From a virus, in the IMG/VR virus record IMGVR_UViG_3300021061_000218, positions 1 to 54,421 of that record: DNA of 54,421 bases; one strand, given 5' to 3'. The notes under the pieces are model-generated. The model saw nothing but the letters and a program-made list of their open reading frames with translations. It made no database searches and was not told the origin of the DNA. This document shows positions 1 to 54,421 of the stretch, one piece after another. Positions within the stretch are counted from its first letter, which is position 1. Each line of letters starts with the position of its first letter. Made by a program: the position numbers and the translations under genes.

Positions 1-408
1 GTCCCGGTGGATGCGGTACTGGCGTCTGAGCCGAAAGAAGGAGTCGCAACCCAGGATCTTCCGGTCACAAGCATCGGGAGCGATACGGCAATCTTCGACA
101 TCGGCTCCAACAGCGTGAAGCAGTACAAGGATGTCATCGCCAAGGCGGGCATGATCGTCTGGAACGGGCCTATCGGTTTCTACGAAGTCGAGGCGTTCGC
201 CGGAGCGACAAAGGAGCTCGCCACTGCCGTCGCAGCAGCCACTAAAAAGGGAGCCGTGTCCATTATCGGCGGAGGCGATACCTTGGATTTCCACGTCCGC
301 TACGGCTATCCCTTGGACGCCTACTCGTTTGTGAGTACCGGTGGCGGCGCGATGCTGGAGTTCATCGCCGGCAAAACGCTCCCGGCACTTGTGCCGCTTC
401 GGGCCTGA
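1..408 (+). CDS. pgk: Phosphoglycerate kinase, C-terminal part (5' end outside window)
   Basis: C-terminal half of the glycolytic enzyme that transfers a phosphate from 1,3-bisphosphoglycerate to ADP in the cytoplasm. The frame is open from base 1 (VPVDAVLA...). It shows the family blocks IVWNGPIGF, the nucleotide-binding SIIGGGDT and the closing STGGGAMLEF. It ends with TGA at 406-408. The GGGD block continues TLDF rather than the usual SAAA, a modest divergence. This is a chromosomal housekeeping gene, so the left end of the window is bacterial rather than phage. The identification is secure. Confidence 0.97.
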   Translation, partial: VPVDAVLASEPKEGVATQDLPVTSIGSDTAIFDIGSNSVKQYKDVIAKAGMIVWNGPIGFYEVEAFAGATKELATAVAAATKKGAVSIIGGGDTLDFHVRYGYPLDAYSFVSTGGGAMLEFIAGKTLPALVPLRA

Positions 409-441: not shown

Positions 442-2019
442 ATGATGACCGTCCAACTCCAGGTCCTCTTTCGGAAGGAAGAGGAGTCATGGTCGGCGTT
501 CGCACGGCGTGCCGTTGACGCGCATGGTGACGTGCTGCTCGTGCTCGGCGCATCGGAGGATTCACTGCAGCGGGAGGAACAGCGTCGTGCATTCCTAGAA
601 GAGATCGGCGCACATCGCACGCGAATCCGCCTGGCCACGCACGATGAAAGTCTCGCGGCGGCCGCCCGAAAGCATGGCGTGCGCGTTATCGAGAACACAC
701 GGGCTTTGCGGACGGCGCTCGCCGGACATGCGTCCATGAAGGAAGCTCTTCGGCTGTTCTCGCCGCAACTCTGGAGACAGGAATGGCGGTCGCGTCTGCA
801 GTCCATGGGCCTGCTTTCCCTTCCGAAACTGCGCATCTGGACGCTGATTCTGATGAGCGTCGGTCTCTTCCTGTTCGTGCTGTTCAAGCTGCTGCCGTCC
901 GCGGAAATCCGGATCTGGCCGCGAGGTGAAACCGCCAGCCAAACCACTAATATCTTCCTCGTCCAGTCCGGCGCGACGGTGCCGTCCCGCGCCCGCAGCT
1001 TGCCGCTGACACCCATCGACGTGACCGTACGCAAGTCGATCACGTTCGATCAAATCAGCAAACAATTCATCGGCACCAACGCGCAGGTCTCCATGACCGT
1101 CGTCAACAAGACGGACGAGGAAGTGTCACTGAAGGAGGGGACTCGCTTCGTGAACCAGGCAGGGATGGTGTTCAAGATCACGAAGAGGGCGACCGTGCCG
1201 CCGCAGGGGAAGATGGCCGTCCCTTCCAAAGCCGAGGATGAAGACATGTTCAACGAAATCATCGGAGAGCGCGGAAATGTTCCTGCCGGTTTGAAGTGGA
1301 CGATTCCGGCGCTCGATGCCGAGCTCCAGAAGGTTATCTACGGCGAGAACCGGGTGGCCGCCACGGGAGGTAGAACCGCCTATCGCACGGTATTGCAGCA
1401 GGGCGATCTCGACTTGGCTCGCAAGCGCCTGGAGCAGGAGCTGCTGGCGGAGGCGAGGAGTTTGGTGCAGGAAGAGCTCATCCAGATGAATCAGCGCGAT
1501 CCCACGCGGCAGCTCCGCCTGCTCTCCTACGACCAATTGGTGAAGCCGACCTACAGTGGTTTCGTGTTGCCGACGCATCAGTTGAATCAGCCCGTAAGTT
1601 CCATTTCCGCGCAGGGAACGCTGATCTACCGTGTCCTGGCGTACGACGCCCAATCCATACTGGACATCGTCGGCACCGATCTGATGGCGCACGTATCCGA
1701 CGGTAAGAAGATCATCGAGGACACGGTGAACGTCGATCACATTGAGCTGCGTGTGTTCGATTACGCCGATGATCTCTCCTGGATCAAGTCCACGGTAGAA
1801 CTGACGGCCACGGAACAGTACATCTTGGATCCGTTGACGCCGCCGGGAGCCAAATTCGCGAAGAAAATCCGCGACGCCGTGACAGGGGAGTCGAAGCAGG
1901 ACGCCCTGCGGATCGTGAAGAACCTGCCCGAAGTGGAGAAAGCCGAAATCAGCCTCTGGCCGCCCTGGGGAAACACGTTGCCCGACATTCCTTCGCATAT
2001 TTCCATCTCCATCGAGTGA
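442..2019 (+). CDS. Single-pass membrane protein of the CPR 'baseplate J-like' type
   Basis: A 525-residue protein with a cytoplasmic N-terminal region (1-130), one transmembrane segment at about 132-152 (WTLILMSVGLFLFVLF) and a large outer region rich in beta strands, including a GERGNVPAG stretch near residue 275. Proteins of this layout are common in CPR genomes and are often annotated as baseplate J-like or hypothetical; the function is unknown. Two ATGs lie in tandem at 442 and 445, and no Shine-Dalgarno sequence is visible. It starts 33 bases after pgk and overlaps the next gene by ATGA, so the two are probably co-transcribed. Confidence 0.8.
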   Translation: MMTVQLQVLFRKEEESWSAFARRAVDAHGDVLLVLGASEDSLQREEQRRAFLEEIGAHRTRIRLATHDESLAAAARKHGVRVIENTRALRTALAGHASMKEALRLFSPQLWRQEWRSRLQSMGLLSLPKLRIWTLILMSVGLFLFVLFKLLPSAEIRIWPRGETASQTTNIFLVQSGATVPSRARSLPLTPIDVTVRKSITFDQISKQFIGTNAQVSMTVVNKTDEEVSLKEGTRFVNQAGMVFKITKRATVPPQGKMAVPSKAEDEDMFNEIIGERGNVPAGLKWTIPALDAELQKVIYGENRVAATGGRTAYRTVLQQGDLDLARKRLEQELLAEARSLVQEELIQMNQRDPTRQLRLLSYDQLVKPTYSGFVLPTHQLNQPVSSISAQGTLIYRVLAYDAQSILDIVGTDLMAHVSDGKKIIEDTVNVDHIELRVFDYADDLSWIKSTVELTATEQYILDPLTPPGAKFAKKIRDAVTGESKQDALRIVKNLPEVEKAEISLWPPWGNTLPDIPSHISISIE

Positions 2020-2669
2020 TGCCGAGCATCGGTCGACTTTGGCGTTTCTTCTGGATGACAGTCCTGGGCTTGGTTGCACTCGCCGCGCTCACCTTCGGCG
2101 CAGTCCTCCTCTTCGTCGTGTCGCAGTTCGACGGTTCCGCCGATTTCCCTGCGGACTGCGGCGTGGTCTTCGGAGCCGCGGTCTGGCCCTCGGCCAAGGA
2201 CGCCAGCGGCGCGGTGGTCTTATCCCAGCCGGGGCCGGGGATTACCAGAAGGGTGCAGACGGCCGTGGATCTCTACAAGAACGGTCAATTGCGGCGCATT
2301 TTCGTCACCGGCGGCAGGGGAGACGGCATGCCGGAAAGTGAGGCGCAGGTGATGCGCCGTTTCGCGGTGCAACAAGGCGTGAAGCCGTCGGATGTGATGA
2401 TGGAGACGAATTCACACTCCACGGAGGAGAATATCGCCCTGACCCAAAACTTGACTTCCGACTGCTCCGATATCGTGGCGATCAGTGATCGCTATCATCT
2501 GGCTCGGATCTCCTACATTGCCTGGGTGGACGGTTGGCCTGTTGCCACGCATCCGGCCTCACGCGTGGCGACGAGACGCTTCGAAGTCTACAGCGTGGTG
2601 CGCGAGGCACTGGGAATCCTGCATTTCACGTTCGAGCGGATTACCGGCATCCGAATTCTCGAACCCTAA
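2016..2669 (+). CDS. YdcF/SanA-like DUF218 membrane protein
   Basis: A 217-residue protein with an N-terminal membrane anchor at about residues 5-28 and a DUF218 fold. Family signatures are VVFGAAVW, the R-x-x-x-A-x-x-L-Y helix (RRVQTAVDLY), FVTGGRGDG followed by ESEAQVM, the STEENI block and AISDRYHLAR. DUF218 proteins (SanA, ElyC, YdcF) are tied to envelope integrity and peptidoglycan or lipid-carrier metabolism. Its ATG overlaps the stop codon of the previous gene (ATGA), which suggests translational coupling. It is the last recognisable chromosomal gene before the phage junction. Confidence 0.9.
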   Translation: MMPSIGRLWRFFWMTVLGLVALAALTFGAVLLFVVSQFDGSADFPADCGVVFGAAVWPSAKDASGAVVLSQPGPGITRRVQTAVDLYKNGQLRRIFVTGGRGDGMPESEAQVMRRFAVQQGVKPSDVMMETNSHSTEENIALTQNLTSDCSDIVAISDRYHLARISYIAWVDGWPVATHPASRVATRRFEVYSVVREALGILHFTFERITGIRILEP

Positions 2670-3139: not shown

Positions 3140-3167
3140 TGTTAACATAAAATGCATTATGTAAACC
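3140..3167 (+). other. attL: dif-like Xer recombination site (attL)
   Basis: The sequence reads TGTTAACATAA - AATGCA - TTATGTAAACC: two 11-bp arms forming an imperfect inverted repeat around a 6-bp centre, the architecture of bacterial dif. The right arm closely matches the E. coli XerD half (TTATGTTAAAT) and the left arm ends in the typical CATAA. Identity with the right end of the element starts exactly at the first central base (3151), where Xer strand exchange occurs. The left arm should be chromosomal and the right arm phage-derived. Confidence 0.8.
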
Positions 3168-3277
3168 AAGCCCTAGACAGATCCCAACATTCCATAAGCC
3201 CGTCCCCCTCCTGCGACTCCCCCATCTTCCTAACCGTTGGGAGGGGCCGGCTACTTCATTCCACGTTGAGGCGTGGA
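3151..3277 (+). repeat. 127-bp direct repeat, left copy
   Basis: Identical to 54295-54421 over the full 127 bases up to the end of the window. The base just left of the repeat differs (A at 3150, T at 54294). The repeat covers the central region and right arm of the dif-like site and the start of the integrase leader. The exact length may reflect where an assembly stopped rather than a biological repeat length. Confidence 0.95.
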
Positions 3278-3318: not shown

Positions 3319-3408
3319 ACCACAATATGTCTTCTCCAAAACATGTTGACTCCCCTGTCCACCCCGAGGATCATTCTGAGTTCTATGATTATACCATCAA
3401 ATCCTCTC

Positions 3409-4353
3409 ATGCAAGCTATCGAGAGATACCTGCAGTTCCTGAAGGCGGAGCAGAATAGATCCCCGCTCACGGTCCTGAGCTATGCCGATTCCCTCACGTT
3501 CGTCTGCAAGCACATTGGGGTCTCCTCCCCGCTGGAGATCAGCAAAGAGGTCGTGCGGAACTTCAAGGGGGAGCTGCATGAGTTTAAGAAGAGAACCGGT
3601 GGGCGGCTGTCTACTCGGACGAAGAACCACCACTTAACCGTCCTCCGTGCCTTCCTTCGCTACCTGATCCGGGAGGAGGGCGCCATTGTGTACTCGCCTG
3701 ACAATATCTCCTTGTTCCACGAGGAGGAGCGGCACGTGAAGTTCCTCTCGAAAGAGGAGATGCAGCGCCTCATCGAGGCCCCCAACAGGATGACAAGAGA
3801 GGGAATGCGGGACGCAGCCATGCTCAACCTCTTCTTCTCAACAGGACTCCGCCTCCAGGAGCTTCGCCTCCTCAATAGGGATGACGTGAACCTCGAGAGC
3901 TGTGAGATGAGCATTCGGGGCAAGAGAGGGAAGGTGCGGGTGGTCTTCCTCTCCCCATCCTGTGCGGAGGCGTTACGGGACTACCTTTCGGTGCGGATCG
4001 ACCAGCTCCCCGCCCTCTTCATTCGCAGGCTCGGGTCTGCTGCGTGGAATCCTGTTAAAGGGGAGGATTACCGCCTCTCCCGGCAGTGGATCAATCAGAT
4101 GGTGAAGAAGTACGCCCGTCAGGCGGGCATCACCTGCTCCCCCTCGCCCCATACGCTGCGCCACTCCTTTGCCACCGACCTTTTGAGTAACGGGGCGGAC
4201 CTGCGTAGCGTGCAGGAGATGCTGGGGCATGCGGATCTCTCGACAACCCAGATCTATACCCATGTGACGAACCCGCAGCTCAGAGAGACGCATAAGAAGT
4301 TCCATTACGACCCCCATCTCCCGAAGGTCACCCTGCCTTCTTCCGGGGCCTGA
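3409..4353 (+). CDS. int: Xer-like tyrosine recombinase (phage integrase)
   Basis: A 314-residue site-specific recombinase, about the size of XerC/XerD. The N-terminal SAM-like domain (1-95) has the Xer pattern IERYLQFLKAEQNRS. The catalytic domain shows Arg148 (TGLRLQEL), a lysine in GKRGKVR (about 172-175), His248/Arg251 (HTLRHSFA), His274 (LGHADL) and the nucleophile Tyr283 (TTQIYTHV). ATG 3409 was chosen because the Xer domain begins there and it follows a pyrimidine-rich leader; in-frame ATGs at 3343 and 3385 are alternatives. It lies 240 bases from a dif-like site, its probable substrate. Confidence 0.93.
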   Translation: MQAIERYLQFLKAEQNRSPLTVLSYADSLTFVCKHIGVSSPLEISKEVVRNFKGELHEFKKRTGGRLSTRTKNHHLTVLRAFLRYLIREEGAIVYSPDNISLFHEEERHVKFLSKEEMQRLIEAPNRMTREGMRDAAMLNLFFSTGLRLQELRLLNRDDVNLESCEMSIRGKRGKVRVVFLSPSCAEALRDYLSVRIDQLPALFIRRLGSAAWNPVKGEDYRLSRQWINQMVKKYARQAGITCSPSPHTLRHSFATDLLSNGADLRSVQEMLGHADLSTTQIYTHVTNPQLRETHKKFHYDPHLPKVTLPSSGA

Positions 4354-11931: not shown

Positions 11932-12035
11932 GTTTGTGTGTTGTTATTAATTAAGGATATAACAGAATTCGGTGTTTTACGGTAGAGGGCAGGTTAAGGC
12001 TTGTTGACTGATGAGGATGGGCGTAAGTTGTTGGT

Positions 12036-25460: not shown

Positions 25461-25810
25461 ATCTTGGCGGGGATGGTCGGCTGCGCATCTGCGTCTTTGA
25501 CCTGCTTCCACATGGAGGCGAAGTCATGCGTGATTTCCGACACCATTTCGACACCTCCGGCGCACACCGTAGCCTCCGTCGTCTTCCCCACGATCGTAAA
25601 GCCGTGGGCCTTGTCTCGCTTGCGATCCGCCTTCCACAGAAGGTACTTCTCTAGCAGACGGAACTCCGGCTGGGAGATCAGGTGGCAGATCGCCTTCATT
25701 TCATCGAGCTTGGGTTCCTTGAAGCCGGCAGTCGTGAACACGGGGTCCACAACGGCGCCCTGCTTTGCGGGACCGAAGAGTCCTCTAATCCACTCGATGA
25801 ACTTTTGCAT
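25457..25810 (-). CDS. Hypothetical protein after the portal gene
   Basis: A 117-residue protein with an amphipathic N-terminal helix (MQKFIEWIRGLFG), a charged middle (LLEKYLLWKADRKRDKAHG) and a helical end. Its ATG shares one base with the portal stop (TGATG), so it is translationally coupled to the portal. No family recognised; a head-assembly role is suggested by position only. Confidence 0.55.
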   Translation of the reverse strand: MQKFIEWIRGLFGPAKQGAVVDPVFTTAGFKEPKLDEMKAICHLISQPEFRLLEKYLLWKADRKRDKAHGFTIVGKTTEATVCAGGVEMVSEITHDFASMWKQVKDADAQPTIPAKI

Positions 25811-27873
25811 CACTGAAGTTGGTTAAGCATGGAAAGCTGGTCAGTTCCACTCATAGGCGGCTGTGCTGGACCCTGCGGCATCCCCTCTTCTTGGGGCATG
25901 GCCTGGGGCTCAGGTGACTTAAACGTCTGTTGGAACTTCTTTTTCAGCTCTTCCATGGCACTCGTGGCGGACCTCCCCTCGTCTCTCTGCTCGCTCACGA
26001 TGACCTTCTTCACGGGCAAATCATTGACCTCGGCCAGCTCCTTCGAGAGGGCTTCCAGGTCCCAGACCAGCTTCCCGCTAGCAACCCCCGTCTCCGGATT
26101 CACCTGGAGAGAGGAGCCGTTCACGGTGATGGCGGTGTTCAGCAATTCGCTGAGCGTCAGCTTCTTGGCCTCCTTCGAGGATCCCATGGCGCTCGGGCGC
26201 ACGGCACGGACATCCAGTCTCGATTTCGTGCGGATGTACTCCGGGCGGGCGAGGATGTAGCTGTTGCCCGAGGGGTCCAGTCGCAGGGAGAAAGACTTTT
26301 TGCTCTTGTCCTCCTCTTCGATGATCTTCATGCCGTCCATCGGGATCTTCCTCTTTTCGAGCTTCGCAATCGGATTCTTGTCTTTGTCACGGACAATCTC
26401 ATCTTCCTCAAGGTCCGAGATGTCTTCCTCAGCCATCAGCCTCCTTATCTTGGGGGCCGGGAAGTACTGCATGATGTCTTGGATCAAGAGGTTGCCGAGA
26501 CGCACGATGAAGTTCGCCTCATTCTCTCGGAGGTTGGCGTTCACTCTTGCGAGCATTCCCTCTTTCTTCAGGGCCTCGATGCCCACCCGTTCCGACTGCT
26601 CACCGAAGAGCTGCTGGTAGTTGATGCCCGTCACCCAGATCAGAAGCTCCTCGATCTTGTCTTTCAACTTGTAGCTCTCGCCGGGCACGGAGCCCAGCTG
26701 CATCAGTTCGATGTTGTCTTTGGCCCCGTCTAAAACGACGCCCGGATAGGAAGCGATGGATCTGGGGTCGACGACCGAGTCGTCGGAGGTCGCAAGGATC
26801 GGGAAGGCGAGTTTCGTGGCCCGCACCTCCGCCTGCATGATGGCGTTGTAGGCGGCCTCAAGCGATTCGATGAGCTTGGGGATCCCCTTGCTGTAGAACG
26901 TGTGAGGACGCCGGTGCATGTGGAGCACGGCGAAAGGCAGTTCCTTGTGGTCGTCTAAGAGGCAGGTCGGGCGGATCAAGACGTTGTTCGCCATTACAAC
27001 GTATTCGTCTCGGTACTTATTCCAGTACTCGAGAACCACCACTCGCTTCGTCTCATCGGGGATGAGCGAGAGCGGGGACGTCAGCATGTGCTTGTCATCC
27101 AGGCGGTAAGCGCAGCCAGGCTGCACGTACTCGATATTCTGGTATCGCTTGTCGTGCTGGACCATCTGCTTGAACTGAGCCCAGCTCATCTCCGTCTCCA
27201 GCATGCAGTCTTCCGCTTCGTCGATGTCTTTCGCCGCATCATCGATTAAAAACCTCTTCGGGTTATCGATAATCTCGATCTTGATGTCGTCCCAGGGGTA
27301 GTCGATCACTTCCTCCGTCTTAATCGTGATCCCATCATCCCCCTTCACGGGCTTGCGCTGCTTGATGATGCGAGTCTCCCGGCAGAAGTAGATGCGCACG
27401 GGGACGTGGCCGTAGACTCTCCTGAGTCGCAGCGCCTGCTGCTTCACCTTGTCCCAATTCGTGCGGGAGAGGGCGTACTTCTTGGCCGCATCGATCAGCG
27501 GCAGCTTCTGTTTGTCGGTGGCTTCCTGGGTATCGACAGCGATATCCGGGAAGGCATCGAGCTCTTCGGCTACAGCCGTATCAATGATCGTGTGGGACCA
27601 CGGAATACGGAAACGCTCCTTGGTGTTGGTCGGGTCCTCGGGGATCTCCGCCTCGAGGATAGTGATGGCGTCATCCCATTCCTGGTGGTAGTGCTGCTGG
27701 GCAACCACAAGATCTTGGTGTCGACGAAGGAGGCGCTCCACGATGGAGCGCTCCTCGTCTGTAGGCTGCCAGACCTTCGGAACCTCGTTCTGCTTCTCTT
27801 CTAAATTCGGAACCTTGTTCTTGTCAGTATACGTGACTTTGTTTTCGGGGTTCAGGGCAGCAGCCTTGGGCAT
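25810..27873 (-). CDS. Portal protein
   Basis: A 687-residue protein in the expected place downstream of the large terminase. Portal-like features are a long helical N-terminal part, the segment LPFAVLHMHRRPHTFYSKG, and the helix-rich IPKLIESLEAAYNAIMQAEV followed by LAFPILATSDDSV and the stem region EELLIWVTGINYQQLFGE. It would form the dodecameric ring through which DNA is packaged. ATG 27873 (MPKAAALNPE) follows a C/A-rich leader; an in-frame start 25 codons upstream encodes an Asn/Thr-rich tail. Confidence 0.75.
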   Translation of the reverse strand: MPKAAALNPENKVTYTDKNKVPNLEEKQNEVPKVWQPTDEERSIVERLLRRHQDLVVAQQHYHQEWDDAITILEAEIPEDPTNTKERFRIPWSHTIIDTAVAEELDAFPDIAVDTQEATDKQKLPLIDAAKKYALSRTNWDKVKQQALRLRRVYGHVPVRIYFCRETRIIKQRKPVKGDDGITIKTEEVIDYPWDDIKIEIIDNPKRFLIDDAAKDIDEAEDCMLETEMSWAQFKQMVQHDKRYQNIEYVQPGCAYRLDDKHMLTSPLSLIPDETKRVVVLEYWNKYRDEYVVMANNVLIRPTCLLDDHKELPFAVLHMHRRPHTFYSKGIPKLIESLEAAYNAIMQAEVRATKLAFPILATSDDSVVDPRSIASYPGVVLDGAKDNIELMQLGSVPGESYKLKDKIEELLIWVTGINYQQLFGEQSERVGIEALKKEGMLARVNANLRENEANFIVRLGNLLIQDIMQYFPAPKIRRLMAEEDISDLEEDEIVRDKDKNPIAKLEKRKIPMDGMKIIEEEDKSKKSFSLRLDPSGNSYILARPEYIRTKSRLDVRAVRPSAMGSSKEAKKLTLSELLNTAITVNGSSLQVNPETGVASGKLVWDLEALSKELAEVNDLPVKKVIVSEQRDEGRSATSAMEELKKKFQQTFKSPEPQAMPQEEGMPQGPAQPPMSGTDQLSMLNQLQ

Positions 27874-28001
27874 ACAGGTGTTGTTGTTTGTGTTTGTGTT
27901 CTTCCCACCCTCAGTGAGAGGCAAAGGCCTGGACGGGCCTAACGCCAATTTCTGAACGTAACAGATGACGATTCTGTCGTCTATGGTTTGGCACTATGAT
28001 T

Positions 28002-30368
28002 TTAGAGGCCCCAGCCGGCTCCCAGGATCTTCGAATGTCTGTCTGCCGGACGTCCCAAAAATCCATAACGATCCCGCAGTGACGCCGCTCTCTTCTTGGA
28101 CTTGCCGCCGCCTTGGGTCTGCAGGATGGCGTAGACCAGGGCGTCACAGTTGTGAGTTAACACACCATTGGCAAAGTACTCGGGCGCCCCCTCAACCGCT
28201 AGGGAGTAAACGGGAGATCTTCTTTCCTCTTCTCGCAAGCCCACCACAAACACGGGAGCAGTATCTTGTCTTTCTGAAGCGGCTTCTGGCGAAAGTCTTC
28301 TTGCAATGCTCGCAAGTACGGACTTCGTCATCTTTACCGCTTTGTCTACGGTCTTTTGCGCAGCAGGCTCGGGAGCAAAATTTTGCCCGGGGAAAGAAGG
28401 CAGTGAATTCTTCTTTGCATACGGAGCACTTGGCCCTAGCCCCCTTTCTTCCCTCCCAGCACTGTCGGCCATGTTCCCTGTGCCACCTTTTTCCTGCTTC
28501 TGTTCGGTGCCAGAGGCCTGCTGCAGGCCTGATGGATTCCAAGTGTCGGAGCATTCTTTCTGACGTTCCCCGGTGGCGCCTCCGGTGCTCGGCAGATGTA
28601 ATGCACTCCAGATTTGAGAGATCATTGTTGAGGGGGTTTTCATCTGAATGGTGGATGTGATAACCCTTGGGGATCGGTCCATTTTCTTTTTCCCAAATGT
28701 ATCGATGTAGGTAGAGAACAGGCCCTTTATTCTCTTTGTGAATCTGGAAATACCTCCGGTGATTGAGACGAGGACTGTCCGGGTAGCGGCGGAAGCGCAT
28801 CCCATCCAGTTCGAAGATTTCAATTTTTTGTTTTTGCATGTGAACATTATATCTCCATAAACGAGTGAATCAAGACGGGTAAATCCCGCTCCCTCTACCC
28901 AAACAGGGTGGTTGGGGGTCCCTGTAAGGGAGGTTCCATCCGAAAGACTTGCTGTGATTACGTGTGCAGAGGGATTCGTCATTCCTGCGGCGACAACCCT
29001 TCTCAGGCCCCTCCGGGTCGATACCAACTCGCCAGGCAGAATATCCTCGATAGTCTTTGGCCCCTTGGAAGTTTCTACCATCGTTCCAGGAACTAGGCAC
29101 ATATCATCGTGCTTCCCTCGTGGGAACGACAGGATCTCGTGCATGAAATCCCCCAGGTAGGGCGCTCCCTCCCGGAGGATCACTCTGCCGGCCTGGACGT
29201 ACCCTGACGCAGCCTGGGCCCTCTGCAGCTTCGACTTTCCAATCTCTGTGAGCGGGTCTAGCGGCATCACGGGCAGGGCGCTCTCTTTCCGAAGCGCCTG
29301 CAAAACGGATGTCCCGGATACCCTGTCCTCAATCATCACCCGGGAGATCGGGAAGTGATTGCTCCAGTGCTCGTGCAGGTTGTACATCTTCTGCTTCAAG
29401 TCAGGGAAGTTCAGGTGAGCACGATAGACGTCTGCAATGAAGAGGCCGTCTTTGGTGACGTAGGCTGTCACGCACGCCGAGTAGTCACTCTCCTCCTTCT
29501 CGGTTAAGGCCGTGTCCCAGATCTGGATCCCCCTCGTAATCTCGTCTGGGTGCGGGAGCCTGCCATATCTGAACCAACCCTCCTGAAAGACATCCCCTTC
29601 GGCAGAGGTGGGACGCTGCTGATAGAGAGCGTTCCACTGCCTTGGGGTTAAGACCGACTTCGTGTCGTTCAAGGCAACAGCATCGAATCTCTCCGGCCAG
29701 AGCGGCTCCCCCACGGGGCGCTTTAAGGGGTCATTGTCTTCAGCGAAGGCCGGGAGGTTGATGACCGTCCAGTTACCCGGGTTCTGCTCGAGGATACGGC
29801 CGACGAGATCGTCTTCATGCCAGCGGGTGCACATCACAATGACCGCTGCGCCTTTGTGTAATCGTGTGTAGGCCACGGAGGTGTAGAAGTCCCAGACCTT
29901 GTCCCGCATCACCTCCGAGTCGGCTTCTTCGCTGTTTTTGATGGGGTCATCGATGATCAGGAGGTCGGCTCCCCTACCCGTGAGTGCTCCTCCGACACCA
30001 ACAGCTGTCAACCCCCCTCTCCTCCCTCCGATGTCCCAGCTCTGGAGCTTTCTTCGCTCTGGGTCGACAGAAACTGCGGCTCCGTCCTCCGTCAAAGCAC
30101 GGAGAGAGGTCTTGCCGAAGATCACTTGGAACTCGGGCCCCTCGATGACACTTCTCACCTGCCTCGAGAAGTCTTCTGCGAGTTCTGCTCCGTACGAAAC
30201 CTGAACAACTTTTTTGTCCGGGTTACGCCCGAGGAACCACGCCGGGAAGCGGATGGAGACTTTCTCACTCTTCCCATGTCTCGGCGGGAGCGTGACGATC
30301 AGCCTCCCAATCCCCTCCTTGCCCTCCGTTGCTACATATCTCTCTACCTGTTCCAATTTCTCATTCAA
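28002..30368 (-). CDS. terL: Terminase large subunit, interrupted by an intein
   Basis: ATP-driven DNA-packaging motor and nuclease. Walker A is PPRHGKSE (28-35) and Walker B is LLIIDDP (136-142). The nuclease domain has IWDTALT (283), IEDRVSG (346) and the split motif HDDM // DALVYA, into which the intein is inserted (residues 424-740). The first usable start is a TTG at 30368, but the same frame stays open to 30518. It encodes terminase-like residues (RRHLRDFTTFTFPGYQ, NARHQDL) upstream without any ATG, GTG or TTG. The true start may be a non-standard codon such as ATA at 30506. Confidence 0.92.
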   Translation of the reverse strand: MNEKLEQVERYVATEGKEGIGRLIVTLPPRHGKSEKVSIRFPAWFLGRNPDKKVVQVSYGAELAEDFSRQVRSVIEGPEFQVIFGKTSLRALTEDGAAVSVDPERRKLQSWDIGGRRGGLTAVGVGGALTGRGADLLIIDDPIKNSEEADSEVMRDKVWDFYTSVAYTRLHKGAAVIVMCTRWHEDDLVGRILEQNPGNWTVINLPAFAEDNDPLKRPVGEPLWPERFDAVALNDTKSVLTPRQWNALYQQRPTSAEGDVFQEGWFRYGRLPHPDEITRGIQIWDTALTEKEESDYSACVTAYVTKDGLFIADVYRAHLNFPDLKQKMYNLHEHWSNHFPISRVMIEDRVSGTSVLQALRKESALPVMPLDPLTEIGKSKLQRAQAASGYVQAGRVILREGAPYLGDFMHEILSFPRGKHDDMCLVPGTMVETSKGPKTIEDILPGELVSTRRGLRRVVAAGMTNPSAHVITASLSDGTSLTGTPNHPVWVEGAGFTRLDSLVYGDIMFTCKNKKLKSSNWMGCASAATRTVLVSITGGISRFTKRIKGLFSTYIDTFGKKKMDRSPRVITSTIQMKTPSTMISQIWSALHLPSTGGATGERQKECSDTWNPSGLQQASGTEQKQEKGGTGNMADSAGREERGLGPSAPYAKKNSLPSFPGQNFAPEPAAQKTVDKAVKMTKSVLASIARRLSPEAASERQDTAPVFVVGLREEERRSPVYSLAVEGAPEYFANGVLTHNCDALVYAILQTQGGGKSKKRAASLRDRYGFLGRPADRHSKILGAGWGL
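28192..28839 (-). CDS. HNH homing endonuclease nested out of frame in the intein
   Basis: A 215-residue HNH nuclease on the same strand as terL but in a different frame. It begins with the usual free-standing HNH N-terminus (DGMRFRRYP, LNHRRYF, YLHRYIWEKENGPIPKG), has the catalytic core YHIHHSDENPLNNDLSNLE, and ends with two Cys4-type zinc units (CSVC ... FCSRAC, then CEHC ... YCSRVC). Its start lies just after intein block B and its stop falls within block F, exactly where an in-frame endonuclease would normally sit. It has its own promoter with the ATG at the predicted transcription start. Confidence 0.9.
   Translation of the reverse strand: MQKQKIEIFELDGMRFRRYPDSPRLNHRRYFQIHKENKGPVLYLHRYIWEKENGPIPKGYHIHHSDENPLNNDLSNLECITSAEHRRRHRGTSERMLRHLESIRPAAGLWHRTEAGKRWHREHGRQCWEGRKGARAKCSVCKEEFTAFFPRAKFCSRACCAKDRRQSGKDDEVRTCEHCKKTFARSRFRKTRYCSRVCGGLARRGKKISRLLPSG
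28846..28873 (-). promoter_or_regulatory. Internal promoter for the nested HNH gene
   Basis: On the minus strand: TTGATT, 16-bp spacer, perfect TATAAT, then six bases and the ATG. The predicted start of transcription coincides with the start codon, so the mRNA would be leaderless. These bases at the same time encode intein residues around GDIMF in the terminase frame. Confidence 0.7.
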
Positions 30369-33451: not shown

Positions 33452-33637
33452 TTTTTTATTTCTGGCTGTGTGAGGGGGGTGGCTCCAATTAAACACCGGG
33501 GGTGGCAAAACACAAACAGACAAGTGCAATTCCGGACTGCAAACATGGCTTGCTGCTGCGCAACTGTGGGCCTTTTCGCCAATTTGTTTACATAATATAG
33601 ATTAGTGAAAGTACATTCACACACAAGTGTGTTGTAC
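33452..33637. other. Convergent intergenic region with dif-half-like sequence
   Basis: No gene. Contains TGTTTACATAA at 33585-33595, which matches the reverse complement of the attL right arm in 10 of 11 bases and is followed by six bases and a weak second arm. An AGTAC ... ACACAC-TT-GTGTGT ... GTACT hairpin at about 33609-33638 could end transcription of the minus-strand gene. Confidence 0.4.
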
Positions 33638-36939: not shown

Positions 36940-37236
36940 ATGCTAAAAAAGATTGCGCCGCTCTTTGCGGTGTTGTTTGTTTTCGCTCTCTTCATCATCA
37001 TCGGAGGCCGCACATTCGCCACAAGCGAACTGGAGGCGGCTAAGCAGCGCTACATCGAATCTGTTCGTGGCAGCTGCATCACTATCGCAAATCGCACGCT
37101 CGACTGCTACGAAGGAGACAAGAGCGAGTGCGAGAAGCTGAAAGACTCCCAGAACTGGTTCATGTCTGAATTCGGGAAGTCTCCCGACTTCGTGTGTCAG
37201 GACCCCGGGGCGTATTTTTTAGTCTTCGGGGCCTGA
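36940..37236 (+). CDS. Exported or membrane-anchored small protein
   Basis: A 98-residue protein with an N-terminal hydrophobic segment (IAPLFAVLFVFALFIIIGG) and an outer part with four cysteines (SCITIA, DCYEG, ECEKL, VCQDP) likely to form two disulfides. It overlaps the start region of the following amidase gene, so it may be an accessory factor (spanin-like or lysis regulator) for that enzyme. The leader contains CTTCCTACCC close to the ATG. Confidence 0.55.
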   Translation: MLKKIAPLFAVLFVFALFIIIGGRTFATSELEAAKQRYIESVRGSCITIANRTLDCYEGDKSECEKLKDSQNWFMSEFGKSPDFVCQDPGAYFLVFGA

Positions 37237-38135
37237 TCAAACCCCTGACAACAATCGTCGTGCACCACACGGCGGTAGAGAGGGAGGACCAGCGAGCAGT
37301 CATAGAAGGAGCTCACCTTGGGCGTGGTTACGCCGAGGGGTGCACAGGCTCCCATATCGCCTATCACTTCTCTATCAACAGTAAAGGAAAGATTGATCAG
37401 AACCGTTGCCCCCAGGAGCGCAGCATCCACACCCGCTGTGGCCTGGGGATGGAGCAATGTCTGGGAGATGAAAAGGACATCAATAACGAGTCCCTCGCTA
37501 TCGTCCTTGAAGGCGACTTCACCAATCACCTCCCGCCCCCTGAGCAGCTCACGGCGCTTCAGAACCTCATCGCCTTCATTAAGGCGCAGTACCCCTCCGT
37601 TACGCACGTCATCCCCCACAGAGAAGCCAGCGCAACTGCGTGCCCGGGAAAGAAACTCTCTGACTGGCTTGGGGCGAAGTATCCCCAGCCGAAGCCAGAG
37701 CCGCCGCTACACAAGGCAGCCCCTCTCCCAGACGATGTCTGGAGGATCACCCGCTACTATTCCCCGATCGTAGGCCAACCTCGCTACTACATGGGCAAGA
37801 CCTACTTAGAGGATGTACGGATGAACTGTGGGCTTAATAAAGATGGGACCGCAGGCGACTGCTATCACACAGCTGATGGAAGCGATGTCCGCAATTACGC
37901 ACCGCTCACGTTGGCAGCATGCCCCCCTTCAATCCCGCATGGCACCAAGCTCAAGATTGAGATGTACGGCATCGTGGAGTGCCACGACAGGGGCGGGGCC
38001 ATCAAAGAGAAGCGTATTGACCTCTGGGCAGGACTTGGCATGGACGGCCTCGCCGTCCTCGCAGATAAGAAGTACGCCTGCCCTGGCGGTGCTACGAAAG
38101 ACGGCTGTCCTCTGAAAGTAGAAATCATGAAGTAA
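37194..38135 (+). CDS. N-acetylmuramoyl-L-alanine amidase with C-terminal 3D domain
   Basis: A 313-residue two-domain lysin. The amidase_2/PGRP domain (about 18-165) has zinc ligands His24/25 (VVHHTAV), His142 (PHREAS) and Cys150 (ACPGKK). The second domain (about 185-313) is a 3D double-psi barrel with GTKLKIEMYGIVECHDRG and KRIDLWAG, as in MltA- and YuiC-like lytic enzymes. No ATG lies near the domain start: GTG 37194 is used here, and a CTG at 37233 that overlaps the previous stop is an alternative. It ends at a strong terminator. Confidence 0.9.
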   Translation: MSGPRGVFFSLRGLIKPLTTIVVHHTAVEREDQRAVIEGAHLGRGYAEGCTGSHIAYHFSINSKGKIDQNRCPQERSIHTRCGLGMEQCLGDEKDINNESLAIVLEGDFTNHLPPPEQLTALQNLIAFIKAQYPSVTHVIPHREASATACPGKKLSDWLGAKYPQPKPEPPLHKAAPLPDDVWRITRYYSPIVGQPRYYMGKTYLEDVRMNCGLNKDGTAGDCYHTADGSDVRNYAPLTLAACPPSIPHGTKLKIEMYGIVECHDRGGAIKEKRIDLWAGLGMDGLAVLADKKYACPGGATKDGCPLKVEIMK

Positions 38136-44494: not shown

Positions 44495-45288
44495 GTCCTG
44501 TCGATCTTTCACAGAAACGCTGTTTCGTAGACAAGAGGTTCTATCCGCTCGTCCATCCGGAGACCGGGGAGAGCAAGAAGGGCCCCTCTGTCACCACTAT
44601 CCTGGATTTCGTCCGTGAGAAGGGATTTCTGGACCAGTGGGAAAGCGAATTCATTGAACTGTGGGGAGTCGACGGCTACAAGAAATTCCTCGAAAAGAAA
44701 GCCGCTGAAGGGACCATGCTCCACTCGCTGATAGAGCTCTATCTGAATCGAGTGTTGCTGAAGGACCCCACCCCGATCGAATGGACGGAGGGTATCTCCG
44801 GTTTTGTCTGGAAGAAGTTCCTCAACTTCAAAGCTTGGTTCGAGGAGCATCGACCGAACATCCTCTGGATGGAGCGAACAGTGCAGTCTTGGGAACTTGG
44901 CTACGGCGGGAGGGCAGACCTCGGCCTAGAAATGACCAGGGACACTGACGACTACAAGAAGGGGCAACTCTTCGTCCACGATCACAAGTCATCGAAATCT
45001 GCGACGTCGAAACATCTGGAACAGGATGCAGCCTATATCTACGCCCTGGAAGAAGAGACGGGGCTGAAGTACCACGGAGTTGTAGTGCCGTTTGGAACGC
45101 CGACGAGAAAGGGTTACAAGCCGGTCTACGTGCGCCGTGATGTCCCCTACCAGAAGGGAAAGACGAAGTCTGAATACGAGTATTACCTAGAGGCGTTCCT
45201 CCTGAAAAAGAAGCTCTTCGATCACTACTTCGACGAGATGTTGCCGGAGGATCAGTGGCTGGATGTGTTTGTTACCCCGAAGTTCTGA
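44491..45288 (+). CDS. RecB/Cas4-like PD-(D/E)XK nuclease
   Basis: A 265-residue protein from GTG 44491, overlapping the groES stop (GTGA). The core shows GTMLHSLIELYLN (about residues 70-82), GGRADLGLE, then VHDHKSSKS, where D-x-K is the catalytic pair, and QDAAYIYALEE, the Q-x3-Y helix of RecB-family nucleases. It probably processes phage DNA in recombination or degrades DNA ends. It starts the coupled run nuclease - RNA ligase - Nmad1-like protein. Confidence 0.8.
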   Translation: MSPVDLSQKRCFVDKRFYPLVHPETGESKKGPSVTTILDFVREKGFLDQWESEFIELWGVDGYKKFLEKKAAEGTMLHSLIELYLNRVLLKDPTPIEWTEGISGFVWKKFLNFKAWFEEHRPNILWMERTVQSWELGYGGRADLGLEMTRDTDDYKKGQLFVHDHKSSKSATSKHLEQDAAYIYALEEETGLKYHGVVVPFGTPTRKGYKPVYVRRDVPYQKGKTKSEYEYYLEAFLLKKKLFDHYFDEMLPEDQWLDVFVTPKF

Positions 45289-46196
45289 TGTTCAAGAAGT
45301 ACCCGCACCTTGAAAGATTCGGCACGGATGAAGTGGAGGATATCCAGTTCGGCGAGTGCTATGTCTTCCCGAAGATCGACGGCACGAACGCCCAGCTGTG
45401 GAGCGAAGAGGGATTGCTAAGAGCAGGCAGCCGCAACAGAACGCTATCACTCGACAGTGACAATGCTGGCTTCTGCGCCTATGCGGTCTCGAATCAAAAG
45501 ATTGTGAAATTCTTAGAGAACAATCCACAATTGCGCCTCTTTGGAGAGTGGCTCGTCCCCCACTCGCTTAGGACCTACAGAGAGGAGGCCTGGAGGAAGT
45601 TCTACATCTTTGATGTCGCAACGGTGACAAGAGAGAGCGGAAATGACGAGCAGATCTATTTCATGCCCTACGGAGAGTACAAACCCCTCCTTGAGGCCGC
45701 CGGCCTCGACTACATTCCGGCGCTCTGCAAGATCACGAATGGCACTCTAGAGCAGTTCGAGGAAATGCTAGAGAAGAACACCTTCCTCATTAAGGACGGA
45801 GAAGGATTCGGCGAAGGCATCGTTATAAAGAACTACGCCTTCAAGAACAAGTTCCATCGAACCACCTGGGCAAAGATCATTCGCAATGAGTTCAAAGAGA
45901 CTCACGCTCACGCCTTCCGGTTGGCAGCGATAACCGGACAGAAGCTCCTTGAAGAAGAGATTGCAAAGGAGTTCGTCACGAAGTCTCTTGTGGAGAAGGA
46001 ATACGAGAAGATCAAGCTAGAGGATGGATGGAGCTCGAAGCTCATTCCCCGCCTCCTCAACACCGTCTTCCACAACATCGTGACAGAGGAAACGTGGAAC
46101 ATCTTAAAGAAGTACGAGTCTCCGAAGATCGACTTCAAGATGCTGCGCACCTACACATACAGGGTAACGAAAGAAGTTGCTCCCCATCTATTTTAA
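45288..46196 (+). CDS. RNA ligase, Rnl2-like
   Basis: A 302-residue nucleotidyltransferase. Motif I is PKIDGTNAQLW with the AMP-accepting Lys29; then LRAGSRNR (motif Ia region), RLFGEW (motif III, 84-88), EGIVIK (motif IV, 176-181) and WAKIIRNEFKE (motif V, Lys196). The C-terminal ~100 residues form a helical domain. Such enzymes reseal broken RNA, for example tRNAs cut by host defences. The start overlaps the previous stop (TGATG). A PNKP-type phosphatase is encoded 2.6 kb further on. Confidence 0.88.
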   Translation: MFKKYPHLERFGTDEVEDIQFGECYVFPKIDGTNAQLWSEEGLLRAGSRNRTLSLDSDNAGFCAYAVSNQKIVKFLENNPQLRLFGEWLVPHSLRTYREEAWRKFYIFDVATVTRESGNDEQIYFMPYGEYKPLLEAAGLDYIPALCKITNGTLEQFEEMLEKNTFLIKDGEGFGEGIVIKNYAFKNKFHRTTWAKIIRNEFKETHAHAFRLAAITGQKLLEEEIAKEFVTKSLVEKEYEKIKLEDGWSSKLIPRLLNTVFHNIVTEETWNILKKYESPKIDFKMLRTYTYRVTKEVAPHLF

Positions 46197-46531
46197 TGGA
46201 GAACACTGCCGACCCCGTCGATCTCCAGCCGACCAAGAAGCCTTATAGGGATCTTGGGATCGAAGTCGGCGAATTAGTGCAGGAGAAAAACGAGGCTTAT
46301 GGGGATAGCTTTGGCAAAACTCCGGCAGTTTTGAAGATTATGTACCCGCAAGGCATCCGGCCCGATCAATACGACGATGTTCTCACCCAAATCCGAGTCC
46401 TGGATAAGCAATTTCGAATTGCTACGGACAAGGATGCCCTAGGAGAAAGCCCGTGGATGGATGTCGCCGGTTACGGGCTCCTTGGGTGGTCAAACGATAT
46501 AAAAGCAAAAGAATCATCTTCCAATAGTTAA
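46196..46531 (+). CDS. Nucleotide-modification-associated domain 1 (DUF1599) protein
   Basis: A 111-residue protein with the family pattern LVQEKNEAYGDSFGKT ... VLTQIRVLDKQFRIATD ... SPWMDVAGYGLLG. DUF1599/Nmad1 proteins occur in phages, often near enzymes of modified nucleotides; the exact activity is not settled. The start overlaps the RNA ligase stop (TAATG). Confidence 0.8.
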   Translation: MENTADPVDLQPTKKPYRDLGIEVGELVQEKNEAYGDSFGKTPAVLKIMYPQGIRPDQYDDVLTQIRVLDKQFRIATDKDALGESPWMDVAGYGLLGWSNDIKAKESSSNS

Positions 46532-46535
46532 GTGT

Positions 46536-46895
46536 ATGGCAGAACCGTACTACAACAACTTCACATACTCCGGCTTCTCCGACTGGGCCATCGCATCAGT
46601 CAGCTACGACGGCACTTGTACCGTCTCTTTCTCTACCCCTTCCCCCCTTTCCTTTCTTATGGGCACCTGTACAGATCTCGTAAAGAAATTCCGTAACTTC
46701 CTCTCCGACGCAGACACGAAGGTCTTAAAGAAGCAGAACTTCTTGGATGACTGTGGCAACATCACCGATGCCGGCATCCGAGTCTGGCTTGAAGATCAGA
46801 TGCGCAAAGAGGAGGTGAGAGCTCGCCTTGTCGAGATTGCCAAAGACCTCCAGAAGGAGGACGACAAAGATGCGAAGAAGTGCACGGACTGTTAA
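46536..46895 (+). CDS. Hypothetical protein, possibly two modules
   Basis: A 119-residue protein. Residues 1-40 (FTYSGFSDWAIASVSYDG) recall a shortened KTSC-type beta module. From Met43 there is a common small phage domain (KKFRNFLSDADTKVLKKQNF LDDCGNITDAG) and a charged helical tail. The Met43 codon at 46662 follows a pyrimidine-only leader, so a 77-residue product may be the main or only one. It ends just before a terminator/promoter overlap. Confidence 0.55.
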   Translation: MAEPYYNNFTYSGFSDWAIASVSYDGTCTVSFSTPSPLSFLMGTCTDLVKKFRNFLSDADTKVLKKQNFLDDCGNITDAGIRVWLEDQMRKEEVRARLVEIAKDLQKEDDKDAKKCTDC

Positions 46896-46919
46896 TAGCA
46901 TTCGGACACGAAGCGAAGG

Positions 46920-46949
46920 AGCGGACAATTGAGAGTCCGCTCTTTTTTT
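46920..46949 (+). terminator. Terminator overlapping a promoter
   Basis: AGCGGAC - AATTGAGA - GTCCGCT followed by CTTTTTTT: a perfect 7-bp stem and T-run that should end the 44.1-46.9 kb transcript. The loop contains the TTGAGA -35 of the next promoter. Confidence 0.85.
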
Positions 46950-46974
46950 GCTATAGTATGTTCACTTCCTAACT
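46929..46974 (+). promoter_or_regulatory. Promoter of the large structured RNA
   Basis: TTGAGA (46929-46934), 17 bp, TATAGT (46952-46957) in extended form TGCTATAGT, seven bases, then CTTCCTAACT (46965-46974), one base from the common motif. Confidence 0.8.
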
Positions 46975-47518
46975 GCTGCCGCCAATGTCGCAATTAAGCG
47001 TTTCATCGGTCCCGCTTTCAGGAAGCTGGCTGTCTCTACAAAGAGAGAGCTGCTGATCTTTGAAAGCACCGGACGCATTGAAAGTGTATTTAAACGGGGC
47101 GTGGCGGAATAGGTAGACGCTAGGAAAATGGGCGGCAGCCGCAAGGCTGTGTCGAGCCTAACGAGTCTCCATCGCCTGCGAGCGCATTACGGTGCCTTCG
47201 CAAGGCTGGAGACATGTAGGGTGACAATACGAGTTTTGGCTTAACGAGGACTGTCCTAGCCCAACAGCGAAAGCACACTTGTTACTCGTCAAATCCCTGC
47301 CGCCCCTATTAAAGAGCCCCGACTCTGGATTCCCGCCCACTGATCAGTTCCCCCCACGGGGGGATCGGGCGGCAGGGAAGGGGCTTCAAAGACCTCCAGA
47401 TGATTCCACTCCTGAGCCACGAAACGTAGATGAGTGGTGACCCGTACATGACGACGGATCCTCCGAATAGGCGGCGTCTGACTGCTGGCGGTGGAATCTT
47501 CGGGGGCCTTCATCCCCC
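46965..47518 (+). ncRNA. ~550-nt structured RNA with a tRNA-Leu-like segment
   Basis: A gene-free 690-base gap starting at a strong promoter. 47096-47120 reads like the 5' part of tRNA-Leu (GGGGCGTGGCGGAA then TAGGTAGACGC: acceptor strand, 3-bp D stem GCG/CGC, GG and A of the D loop). Its acceptor-like GGGGCG pairs with CGCCCC at 47301-47306. A TAGGA/TCCTA pair (47121-47257) sits where an anticodon stem would be but encloses about 130 nt, including CAGCC-GCAA-GGCTG and GTCTCCA/TGGAGAC. A second domain (47316-47382) is a long helix built from GCCCC/GGGGC, TTCCC/GGGAA, GCCC/GGGC and CCCCCC/GGGGGG. A GGGGG/CCCCC hairpin lies near the end. No T-arm or CCA: not a working tRNA. Confidence 0.65.
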
Positions 47519-47590
47519 ATGACTCCCAGGTGGGAGAACTTGCGTCCGGTGTTTTTGCACCTTGTCTTTATTCATTCATTTTCTTTCTCC

Positions 47591-47845
47591 ATGTCTAAGA
47601 AGAAAGTCGAAAAGAAGAAGCCCGCAGTTGCGCAGCCTCCTGTGGCACCCGAGAAGAAGGCTCCTCAGACTCTAGAAGAGCACATCCATTTCGCTATCGA
47701 TGATGAGCTCTTAACGCTCCGTGAGAAGTACAAGATCGACAACGGGTCCATCTTCGCTCTCCAGATCATTCGCAACCAGAATAAGCAGCTCTCCTTCTTC
47801 CTGCGCCAGAGCCAGGTGAAGGCTTCCCAGGTAAATCAGAAGTGA
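47591..47845 (+). CDS. Small Lys-rich protein
   Basis: An 84-residue protein from ATG 47591 (MSKKKVEKKKPAVAQPP). It has a very basic, Pro/Ala-rich N-terminus (1-27), then a helical domain (LEEHIHFAIDDELLTLREKYK, SIFALQIIRNQNKQLSFFL). It could bind nucleic acid through the basic tail. An upstream in-frame ATG at 47519 lies inside the RNA region and is rejected. The stop overlaps the next start (GTGA). Confidence 0.55.
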   Translation: MSKKKVEKKKPAVAQPPVAPEKKAPQTLEEHIHFAIDDELLTLREKYKIDNGSIFALQIIRNQNKQLSFFLRQSQVKASQVNQK

Positions 47846-48366
47846 GCTCCACCTTCACCTTCATGGGCATCGACCCGGGGCAGAACGGGGCAGTGGCTCT
47901 CCTAATGCCTGACGGCAGAACGGAGATCCATGACTTCCCTGTCTACCACGTGAAGGAGGGAAAGATGAATCGGGGGTACTACGACCTCCCAAGGCTCGTT
48001 GATCTCTTCGAGATGATCCTCGTGAAACACGCTCCAGTCCTCGCCATGATTGAAGACGGCATTGCGATGCCGAGTCAGAGCAGTGCCTCTACCAAGAGCA
48101 CGTTCCTCTCAATTGGGGCGCTCTGGGGCATCCTCGCAGCCTTGAAGGTGACGATGTACAGAACGAAGCCAAGTGCATGGAAGAAGTACTTAGGGCTATC
48201 CGAGAAGAGGGCGAAGGGAGAAGCCAAAGCTACCTCCAAAGAGAAGAAGGAGGATGCCATCGCCCTTGCCAAGAAGCTCTACCCCAAGGCTGACATTACG
48301 AAGAAGAAGCATGACGGGAGGGCAGAGGCTCTTTTAATCGCACATTTCCTCAAGAAGGTTATATGA
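47842..48366 (+). CDS. RuvC-like Holliday junction resolvase
   Basis: A 174-residue RNase H-fold nuclease. FMGIDPGQNGAVAL gives the first catalytic Asp (about 11), MIEDG the Glu (about 71), and KKEDAIALAKKL followed by KKHDGRAEALLIAHF the last acids (about 138 and 158), the RuvC pattern. It would resolve branched DNA before packaging. GTG start overlapping the previous stop by four bases. Confidence 0.85.
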   Translation: MSSTFTFMGIDPGQNGAVALLMPDGRTEIHDFPVYHVKEGKMNRGYYDLPRLVDLFEMILVKHAPVLAMIEDGIAMPSQSSASTKSTFLSIGALWGILAALKVTMYRTKPSAWKKYLGLSEKRAKGEAKATSKEKKEDAIALAKKLYPKADITKKKHDGRAEALLIAHFLKKVI

Positions 48367-48785
48367 CGCCGCTGCGATTCAGAGGGTGGAATATAGACAA
48401 TAAGGAGATGGACAATTTTGGTGATTACCTTTATTGGTTTGAGGAGAGAGGTATTGCGAGTGAAAAAGAAATTGGGATTTATGGATGGGTCATCATGCAA
48501 TCCACCGGCCTGAAGGACAAGAACGGGGTGGAGATATTTGAGGGGGATATCGTCGCTGACAGATTCCCGGCGGGGGAAGATATCGGAGAGGTCAAATGGG
48601 GAAACTTTTATGATATGGACGGCGAGTATTACCCGCAGATTAGTGGGCATCACGTACAGTGGCACAAGAAATGCTATGCCCCGAGCGATGAAACATTTAC
48701 CGATCATCTGTTGGGGCAGGTTAAGGCTCTGGAGGTGATAGGGAATATCTACGAGAACCCAGAGCTCCTTCCCGCCGCCAAATGA
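48363..48785 (+). CDS. YopX-family protein
   Basis: A 140-residue protein with the family landmarks LRFRGWN at the start, QSTGLKDKNGVEIFEGDIV in the middle (about 46-64) and VIGNIYENPELL at the end. YopX proteins are widespread in phages; their function is unknown. ATGA overlaps on both sides. Confidence 0.88.
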   Translation: MTPLRFRGWNIDNKEMDNFGDYLYWFEERGIASEKEIGIYGWVIMQSTGLKDKNGVEIFEGDIVADRFPAGEDIGEVKWGNFYDMDGEYYPQISGHHVQWHKKCYAPSDETFTDHLLGQVKALEVIGNIYENPELLPAAK

Positions 48786-49288
48786 GCCCAGCCCTCTCTT
48801 CTCCCCTACCGGGATTTGGCGAGATGGAGTTCGCTCCTATTGATGTGGAGCGGTGCGTCATTGTGGACCTCGATGGCACACTCTCTAATCCCAAGAGCCG
48901 TATCCATCTTGTAACCGGAACAAAGAAGAAGGACTGGGATCAGTTCTTCAAAGAGGCCATTAATGACCCAGCCCACCACTGGTGCGTCCATCTCGTACGG
49001 ACTCTCTATCTCTGTGGCTATGACGTGAGCATTGTGACGGCACGGCCGGAGCGATGCCTGGATGACACGCTGGCATGGCTAGAGAAATACGGAGTCACCT
49101 ACGACACGATCTTCATGCGGAAGGATGGAGACAGGAGGCCTGACCATGTCGTAAAGAAGGCCATCTTCTTAGAGCACCTCCAAGGCAAGAACATTGAGTT
49201 CGTGATCGATGACCGGGAGGAGGTGGTGAAGATGTGGAGGGGGCTTGGATTGCAGTGTCTTCAGCCGAATCCTCACGACTTTAATTAA
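48782..49288 (+). CDS. HAD phosphatase resembling the 3'-phosphatase of T4 PNKP
   Basis: A 168-residue HAD-superfamily enzyme: motif I VIVDLDGTLSNP (about 26-37), motif II SIVTARPE, then a conserved KDGDRRPDHVVKKAIFLEHL and motif III/IV FVIDDREEVVKMWRGLGL. This order and the DRRPDxVVK stretch closely follow the C-terminal phosphatase domain of T4 polynucleotide kinase/phosphatase. The kinase domain is missing. With the RNA ligase at 45288 it could remove 3'-phosphates from cut RNA before sealing. Confidence 0.82.
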   Translation: MSPALSSPLPGFGEMEFAPIDVERCVIVDLDGTLSNPKSRIHLVTGTKKKDWDQFFKEAINDPAHHWCVHLVRTLYLCGYDVSIVTARPERCLDDTLAWLEKYGVTYDTIFMRKDGDRRPDHVVKKAIFLEHLQGKNIEFVIDDREEVVKMWRGLGLQCLQPNPHDFN

Positions 49289-54265: not shown

Positions 54266-54311
54266 GTTTACATAGTGCGGAATAGCGGAAAGATAATGCA
54301 TTATGTAAACC
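54266..54311 (+). other. attP: Right-end attachment site (attP or attR)
   Basis: AATGCA - TTATGTAAACC (54295-54311) repeats the centre and right arm of attL. The bases to the left (AGCGGAAAGAT) match the left Xer arm poorly, as in phages that carry one weak arm. An inverted copy of the right arm, GTTTACATA (54266-54274), lies 20 bases further left and may be an accessory recombinase site. Confidence 0.7.
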
Positions 54312-54421
54312 AAGCCCTAGACAGATCCCAACATTCCATAAGCCCGTCCCCCTCCTGCGACTCCCCCATCTTCCTAACCGTTGGGAGGGGCCGGCTACTT
54401 CATTCCACGTTGAGGCGTGGA
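54295..54421 (+). repeat. 127-bp direct repeat, right copy
   Basis: Identical to 3151-3277 and ends with the last base of the window. It begins at the 6-bp centre of the Xer-like site. It shows that the right end of the element is followed by the sequence that also starts its left end, as in a circular molecule. Confidence 0.95.

What the first reader, a model, noticed from the sequence alone, without database searches (positions are those of the whole stretch)
3140..3167. Phage of a probable CPR bacterium using a dif-like site
The left junction is TGTTAACATAA - AATGCA - TTATGTAAACC, a dif-like layout, and the integrase is a 314-residue Xer-like recombinase. The breakpoint of left/right identity is exactly between the left arm and the centre, where XerC-type cleavage is expected. 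Few phages of CPR bacteria have been described, and use of the chromosome dimer-resolution site offers a host-conserved target.
Basis: partly seen in the sequence, partly recalled or inferred. Interest (0 to 1): 0.75.

Follow-up and report, generated by a model that had tools for sequence, protein, structure and literature searches.

The report
Peribacteria phage with captured Xer recombinase
A tailed virus of Peribacteria, a group of tiny, barely cultured bacteria, carries a fast-evolving copy of its host's own chromosome-separating enzyme and appears to insert itself at exactly the spot on the chromosome that this enzyme recognises.

Summary
The 28-mer at 3140-3167 is a dif site. Related Peribacteria genomes carry the same kind of site at the same place (PGK, baseplate-J-like, DUF218, site, xer). 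Where matched it is single-copy, and it marks the GC-skew switch on a complete 1.24-Mb chromosome (and near it on a second). The host is therefore a CPR bacterium of the Peribacteria.

The 127-bp exact repeat (3151-3277 = 54295-54421) makes the contig read host-attL-phage-attP, a 51,144-bp circle with the breakpoint at the first base of the 6-bp centre AATGCA.

'XerC-type cleavage' is not supported: Peribacteria appear to use one Xer, encoded beside dif, and both dif arms are palindromic and covary.

The phage 'integrase' is 57-62% identical to that host Xer, against 34.7% for the top-listed of 50,697 phage records. It is more diverged than the host Xers compared are from each other (66.6% or more), so it is most likely a captured, fast-evolving copy; its exact origin is unresolved.

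Phages and islands that integrate at dif are known, but those described use host Xer. A tailed CPR phage with its own host-derived Xer at dif is a new variant. attR and recombinase activity were not observed.

The parts
7..408 (+). Host: C-terminal part of phosphoglycerate kinase
   Evidence: Pfam PGK E 9e-33
442..2019 (+). Host: baseplate-J-like 525-aa protein, syntenic neighbour of dif in Peribacteria
   Evidence: 46-59% identical in 18 loci, nearly all titled Peribacteria/Peregrinibacteria
2016..2669 (+). Host: DUF218 protein
   Evidence: Pfam DUF218 E 7e-22
3140..3167 (+). attL: host left arm TGTTAACATAA, centre AATGCA, phage right arm TTATGTAAACC; one mismatch in 24 to the dif consensus
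3151..3277 (+). Left copy of the 127-bp exact repeat; starts at the first base of the centre
3343..4353 (+). Phage Xer recombinase (likely start 3385, 322 aa), catalytic residues intact, short C-terminal extension absent from the host Xers aligned
28002..30368 (-). Terminase large subunit with a probable intein
25810..27948 (-). Portal protein
37194..38135 (+). Endolysin (amidase plus 3D domain)
54266..54279 (+). Inverted copy (12/14) of the attP half site, 17 bp from it; possible accessory recombinase site
54284..54311 (+). attP: degenerate left arm AGCGGAAAGAT, centre AATGCA, right arm TTATGTAAACC
54295..54421 (+). Right copy of the 127-bp repeat, to the contig end

Best explanation
This is a temperate tailed phage of a Peribacteria (CPR) bacterium, integrated at the host chromosome-dimer-resolution site dif by its own recombinase, which is a captured and rapidly evolving copy of the host's single Xer. 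Shown here: related hosts have a one-enzyme dif/Xer module (symmetric dif with centre AATGCA, xer directly beside it, at the replication terminus); the window holds attL and attP; the phage carries an Xer with all conserved catalytic positions that is related to, but diverged from, host Xer. Inferred: the phage Xer pairs its attP with dif, exchanges strands within AATGCA, and leaves attL (left, 23/24 like dif) and attR (right, one degenerate arm, predicted AGCGGAAAGAT-AATGCA-TTATGTTAAC) in front of the host xer. The lysogen would keep one near-intact dif, and the poor attR would make the insertion stable, as reported for LME-1 and the gonococcal island.
For: Syntenic site downstream of the same host genes in relatives; exactly one match in each of 37 of 74 genomes, none in the reversed control; skew switch at the site in complete chromosome G027 and near it in G056; one PF00589 gene in G027, beside dif; covarying symmetric arms; FtsK gamma in 72/74 genomes; 127-bp repeat starting exactly at the centre; recombinase 57-62% identical to host Xers while host-host pairs are never below 66.6%; end branch 1.57 against a median of 0.17; top-listed phage-record match only 34.7%; no other integrase recognised among the phage proteins scanned.
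Against: attR not seen; empty site seen only in other species; no read coverage; the position of the phage Xer in the host tree is unresolved (AU tests reject neither alternative); no second strongly similar Xer in any of the 74 genomes and no sister phage found; attP has only one good arm; activity is untested.
Confidence: 0.78

Rival explanations
1. IMEX-like: the phage integrates at dif with the host Xer in trans, and the phage-borne Xer has another role (for example resolving phage genome multimers) or only helps.
For: The elements reported at dif use host Xer (PMC9765430, PMC2731167); the phage and host centre and inner right arm are the same.
Against: The Xer gene lies directly beside attP, in the usual place of a phage integrase, with intact catalytic residues; attP has only one canonical arm, and its arms carry a variant base (GTTTACATA).
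Confidence: 0.13
2. The recombinase at 3343-4353 is the host's own dif-linked xer, and the contig end is attR or a duplication, so the phage has no Xer of its own.
For: In relatives xer sits just right of dif, as here; AU test does not reject grouping with the nearest host relatives.
Against: It is far more diverged than the flanking host genes predict, and it lies inside the unit bounded by the 127-bp repeat.
Confidence: 0.07
3. Assembly chimera: host and phage DNA joined by error.
For: Metagenomic contig; read coverage cannot be inspected.
Against: The junction falls exactly at the centre of a dif site, and the phage carries a Peribacteria-type Xer; a chance join would do neither.
Confidence: 0.02

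Closest known systems
LME-1 of Legionella with single-recombinase dif/XerL (PMC9765430)
   Same: Element integrates at dif of a single-Xer host; one flank keeps an intact dif, the other a modified one; dif arms are long inverted repeats
   Different: LME-1 is reported to exploit host XerL; here the phage carries its own Xer, and host dif and xer are adjacent rather than over 400 kb apart
difSL/XerS of streptococci and difH/XerH of epsilon-proteobacteria (PMC5357621, PMC2731167)
   Same: Single recombinase encoded beside its dif at the replication terminus
   Different: Peribacteria proteins are about 305-320 aa and do not reach the XerS cut-off; arms are fully symmetric and covary, centre AATGCA
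CTXphi and other filamentous phages at dif (PMC4246890, PMC2731167)
   Same: Phage integrates at dif with a partial dif copy in attP; an inverted second half site is near attP here too
   Different: Small single-stranded phages that use host XerC/XerD; this is a 51-kb tailed phage with its own Xer
Phage and island simple tyrosine recombinases such as Brujita Int and XerT (PMC8138268)
   Same: Mobile-element recombinases thought to be Xer genes taken from hosts
   Different: Here the relation to the host's own Xer (57-62%) is still direct and the target is still the host dif

Membership tests
dif site | About 28 bp: two inverted arms around a 6-bp centre | tested here: met
dif site | Single copy per chromosome | tested here: met
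   exactly one match in each of 37 genomes with a match
dif site | At the GC-skew switch / replication terminus | tested here: met
   G027 best terminus bin 710 kb, site 709,961-709,984; G056 490 and 530 kb tie, site 490.4 kb
dif site | Resolves chromosome dimers | not testable with these tools
   needs an experiment
XerC/XerD two-recombinase system | Two Xer proteins, asymmetric arms | tested here: not met
   one PF00589 gene in complete chromosome G027, symmetric arms, below the XerC and XerD equivalog cut-offs
Single-recombinase dif/Xer module (XerS- or XerH-like organisation) | One Xer encoded beside dif | tested here: met
XerS protein family | Reaches the NCBIfam XerS cut-off (267 bits) | tested here: not met
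   114-116 bits
IMEX (integrative element exploiting Xer) | dif mimic in the element | tested here: met
   attP half site AATGCA-TTATGTAAAC
IMEX (integrative element exploiting Xer) | Relies on host Xer for integration | tested here: inconclusive
   the phage carries its own Xer, but which enzyme acts is not known
Tailed temperate phage (Caudoviricetes) | Terminase, portal, lysis genes, integrase with att sites | tested here: met
   capsid match is weak and no repressor was recognised

The most novel reading that the evidence does not exclude
On integration the phage rebuilds the host's dif-xer module with its own Xer: attL (a near-intact dif) ends up beside the phage xer just as dif sits beside the host xer, while the host xer is pushed about 51 kb away behind a broken site. 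The phage enzyme may then take over chromosome dimer resolution, tying the host's cell cycle to the prophage.
Probability: 0.18. Interest if true: 0.85.

Novelty: new variant of a known kind. Interest (0 to 1): 0.62.

Why it matters
It gives a single-recombinase dif/Xer module for a CPR lineage for which the open-access literature searched here reports none, with natural arm variants (TTAACATAA, TCAAGATAA, TTCGTATAA) that covary and make enzyme-site specificity directly testable. It also shows what looks like an early stage of a process proposed for phage integrases in general: a phage taking over its host's Xer while still aiming at the host's dif. And it ties a tailed temperate phage to a Peribacteria host through a physical junction rather than by prediction.

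Tried and rejected
Exact half-site search in IMG/VR gave two hits in unrelated DNA, taken as chance. Single-protein searches of IMG/VR with the recombinase or the host protein found nothing. Full dif patterns in IMG/VR gave none. Terminase relatives in 74 genomes of the order: only two distant ones, so no sister prophage. The more distant Xers of the same order (about 41%) show no symmetric dif beside xer by the filter used. IMG/VR phages with 42-43% Xers (L144, L145, L163) fall outside the Peribacteria clade. G004, where the gene left of dif and xer lie on separate contigs, was considered as a hidden lysogen, but its left contig shows no dif. The first dif alignment had placeholder outer bases in one row and was replaced. 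The XerC/XerD-type reading was rejected.

Full report
What is in the window. The record is a 54,421-bp virus contig. Its left end is host chromosome: the C-terminus of phosphoglycerate kinase, a baseplate-J-like 525-aa protein and a DUF218 protein. A genome-wide scan with the 525-aa protein returned 18 loci, nearly all titled Peribacteria or Peregrinibacteria, at 46-59% identity. The rest is a tailed phage: terminase large subunit, portal, M23 peptidase, endolysin, DnaB-like helicase, exonuclease, RNA ligase and PNKP-type phosphatase.

The junctions. An exact 127-bp repeat, 3151-3277 = 54295-54421, starts at the first base of AATGCA with no shared base to its left. The right copy ends at the last base of the contig. 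The simplest reading is host-attL-phage-attP, assembled from integrated plus circular (or tandem) phage, with a 51,144-bp circle. That 127 is an assembler k-mer length is my own knowledge; it would explain why the contig stops there.

The target is dif. Downstream of the same genes, relatives carry TGTTAACATAA-AATGCA-TTATGTTAACA or a close variant. Of 74 genomes of the order, 37 have a match within 3 mismatches to the TTAACATAA type, each exactly one, with none in the reversed control. Many of the others carry TCAAGATAA...TTATCTTGA or TTCGTATAA...TTATACGAA, mostly with the same centre, at the same place. On 25 distinct sites, 96.4% of arm cells pair and 23 cells have changes on both sides, against 6.8 in shuffles. 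Relatedness inflates such counts, but sliding the arms by 1 to 3 columns destroys the signal. In complete chromosome G027 (1,239,242 bp) the best GC-skew terminus is the 710-kb bin and the site is at 709,961-709,984. In G056, sampled more sparsely, 490 and 530 kb tie and the site is at 490.4 kb. Bootstraps fall within 40 kb of the site in 52/60 and 43/60. FtsK gamma is present in 72/74 genomes.

One recombinase, beside dif. A search with the window recombinase found, in most genomes of the order, one strong homologue at 53-62% whose match mostly begins within about 200 bp of the site. In G027 it is the only PF00589 gene. So Peribacteria appear to use a single-Xer module, organised like difSL/XerS and difH/XerH (PMC5357621, PMC2731167), but with proteins that do not reach the XerC, XerD or XerS cut-offs.

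The phage recombinase. All conserved catalytic positions are present. It is 57-62% identical to the host Xers compared, while host-host pairs are never below 66.6%. Its end branch is 1.57 against a median of 0.17, inside or next to the Peribacteria clade. AU tests reject neither a position outside all hosts nor grouping with the host's nearest relatives, so the donor is unresolved. The top-listed match among 50,697 phage records is at 34.7%; the best in IMG/VR is at 43% and falls outside the clade. The gene also lies inside the repeat-bounded 51-kb unit. I conclude that it is a phage-borne, fast-evolving copy of a Peribacteria Xer.

How it works. Shown: attL, attP, the host dif in relatives, the recombinase beside attP. 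Inferred: the phage Xer synapses attP with dif, crosses over within AATGCA, and leaves attL (one mismatch in 24 to dif) plus an attR with a degenerate left arm in front of the host xer. LME-1 and the gonococcal island show the same asymmetry, which in LME-1 contributes to stability and leaves an intact dif on one side (PMC9765430). attP also holds an inverted 12/14 copy of its half site (54266-54279), possibly an accessory binding site.

What is new. dif-integrating phages and islands are well known, and those described in the papers read use host Xer; Xer capture by mobile elements has been proposed (PMC8138268). No paper in the library searched combines dif with CPR, Patescibacteria or Peregrinibacteria in the terms used, and none was found on Peribacteria lysogens. 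Absence from an open-access library is weak evidence. I call it a new variant of a known kind.

Limits. No read data, no attR, no sister phage, no empty site from the same species, no activity data.

Noticed in passing
28002-30368 (-): The terminase large subunit carries a probable intein (Hint_2 and Intein_splicing matches below their cut-offs, ending in HNC).
   Followed up: partly
33585-33612: A further GTTTACATAA arm with a dif-like layout lies at 33.6 kb inside the phage; four GTTTACATA in the window against 0.06 expected.
   Followed up: no
45255-49288: RNA ligase and PNKP-type phosphatase genes a few kilobases apart, possibly an RNA-repair pair; a YopX-family gene lies beside the phosphatase.
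   Followed up: no
L009 (G005) 11977-12004: The dif centre is inverted relative to xer in this genome, unlike the others checked.
   Followed up: no
L135 (G034), upstream of xer: A dif with normal arms but a different centre (TCTTCA instead of AATGCA).
   Followed up: no
L145, about 81 bp upstream of its Xer: An IMG/VR phage with a 43% Xer has a weak dif-like site ACCAAGCATAA-AATGAA-TTACGCTATAT before the gene; possibly a parallel case in another host.
   Followed up: partly
L011: A record titled Kiritimatiellales carries the Peribacteria PGK-dif-xer locus, so the bin is probably mislabelled or contaminated.
   Followed up: no
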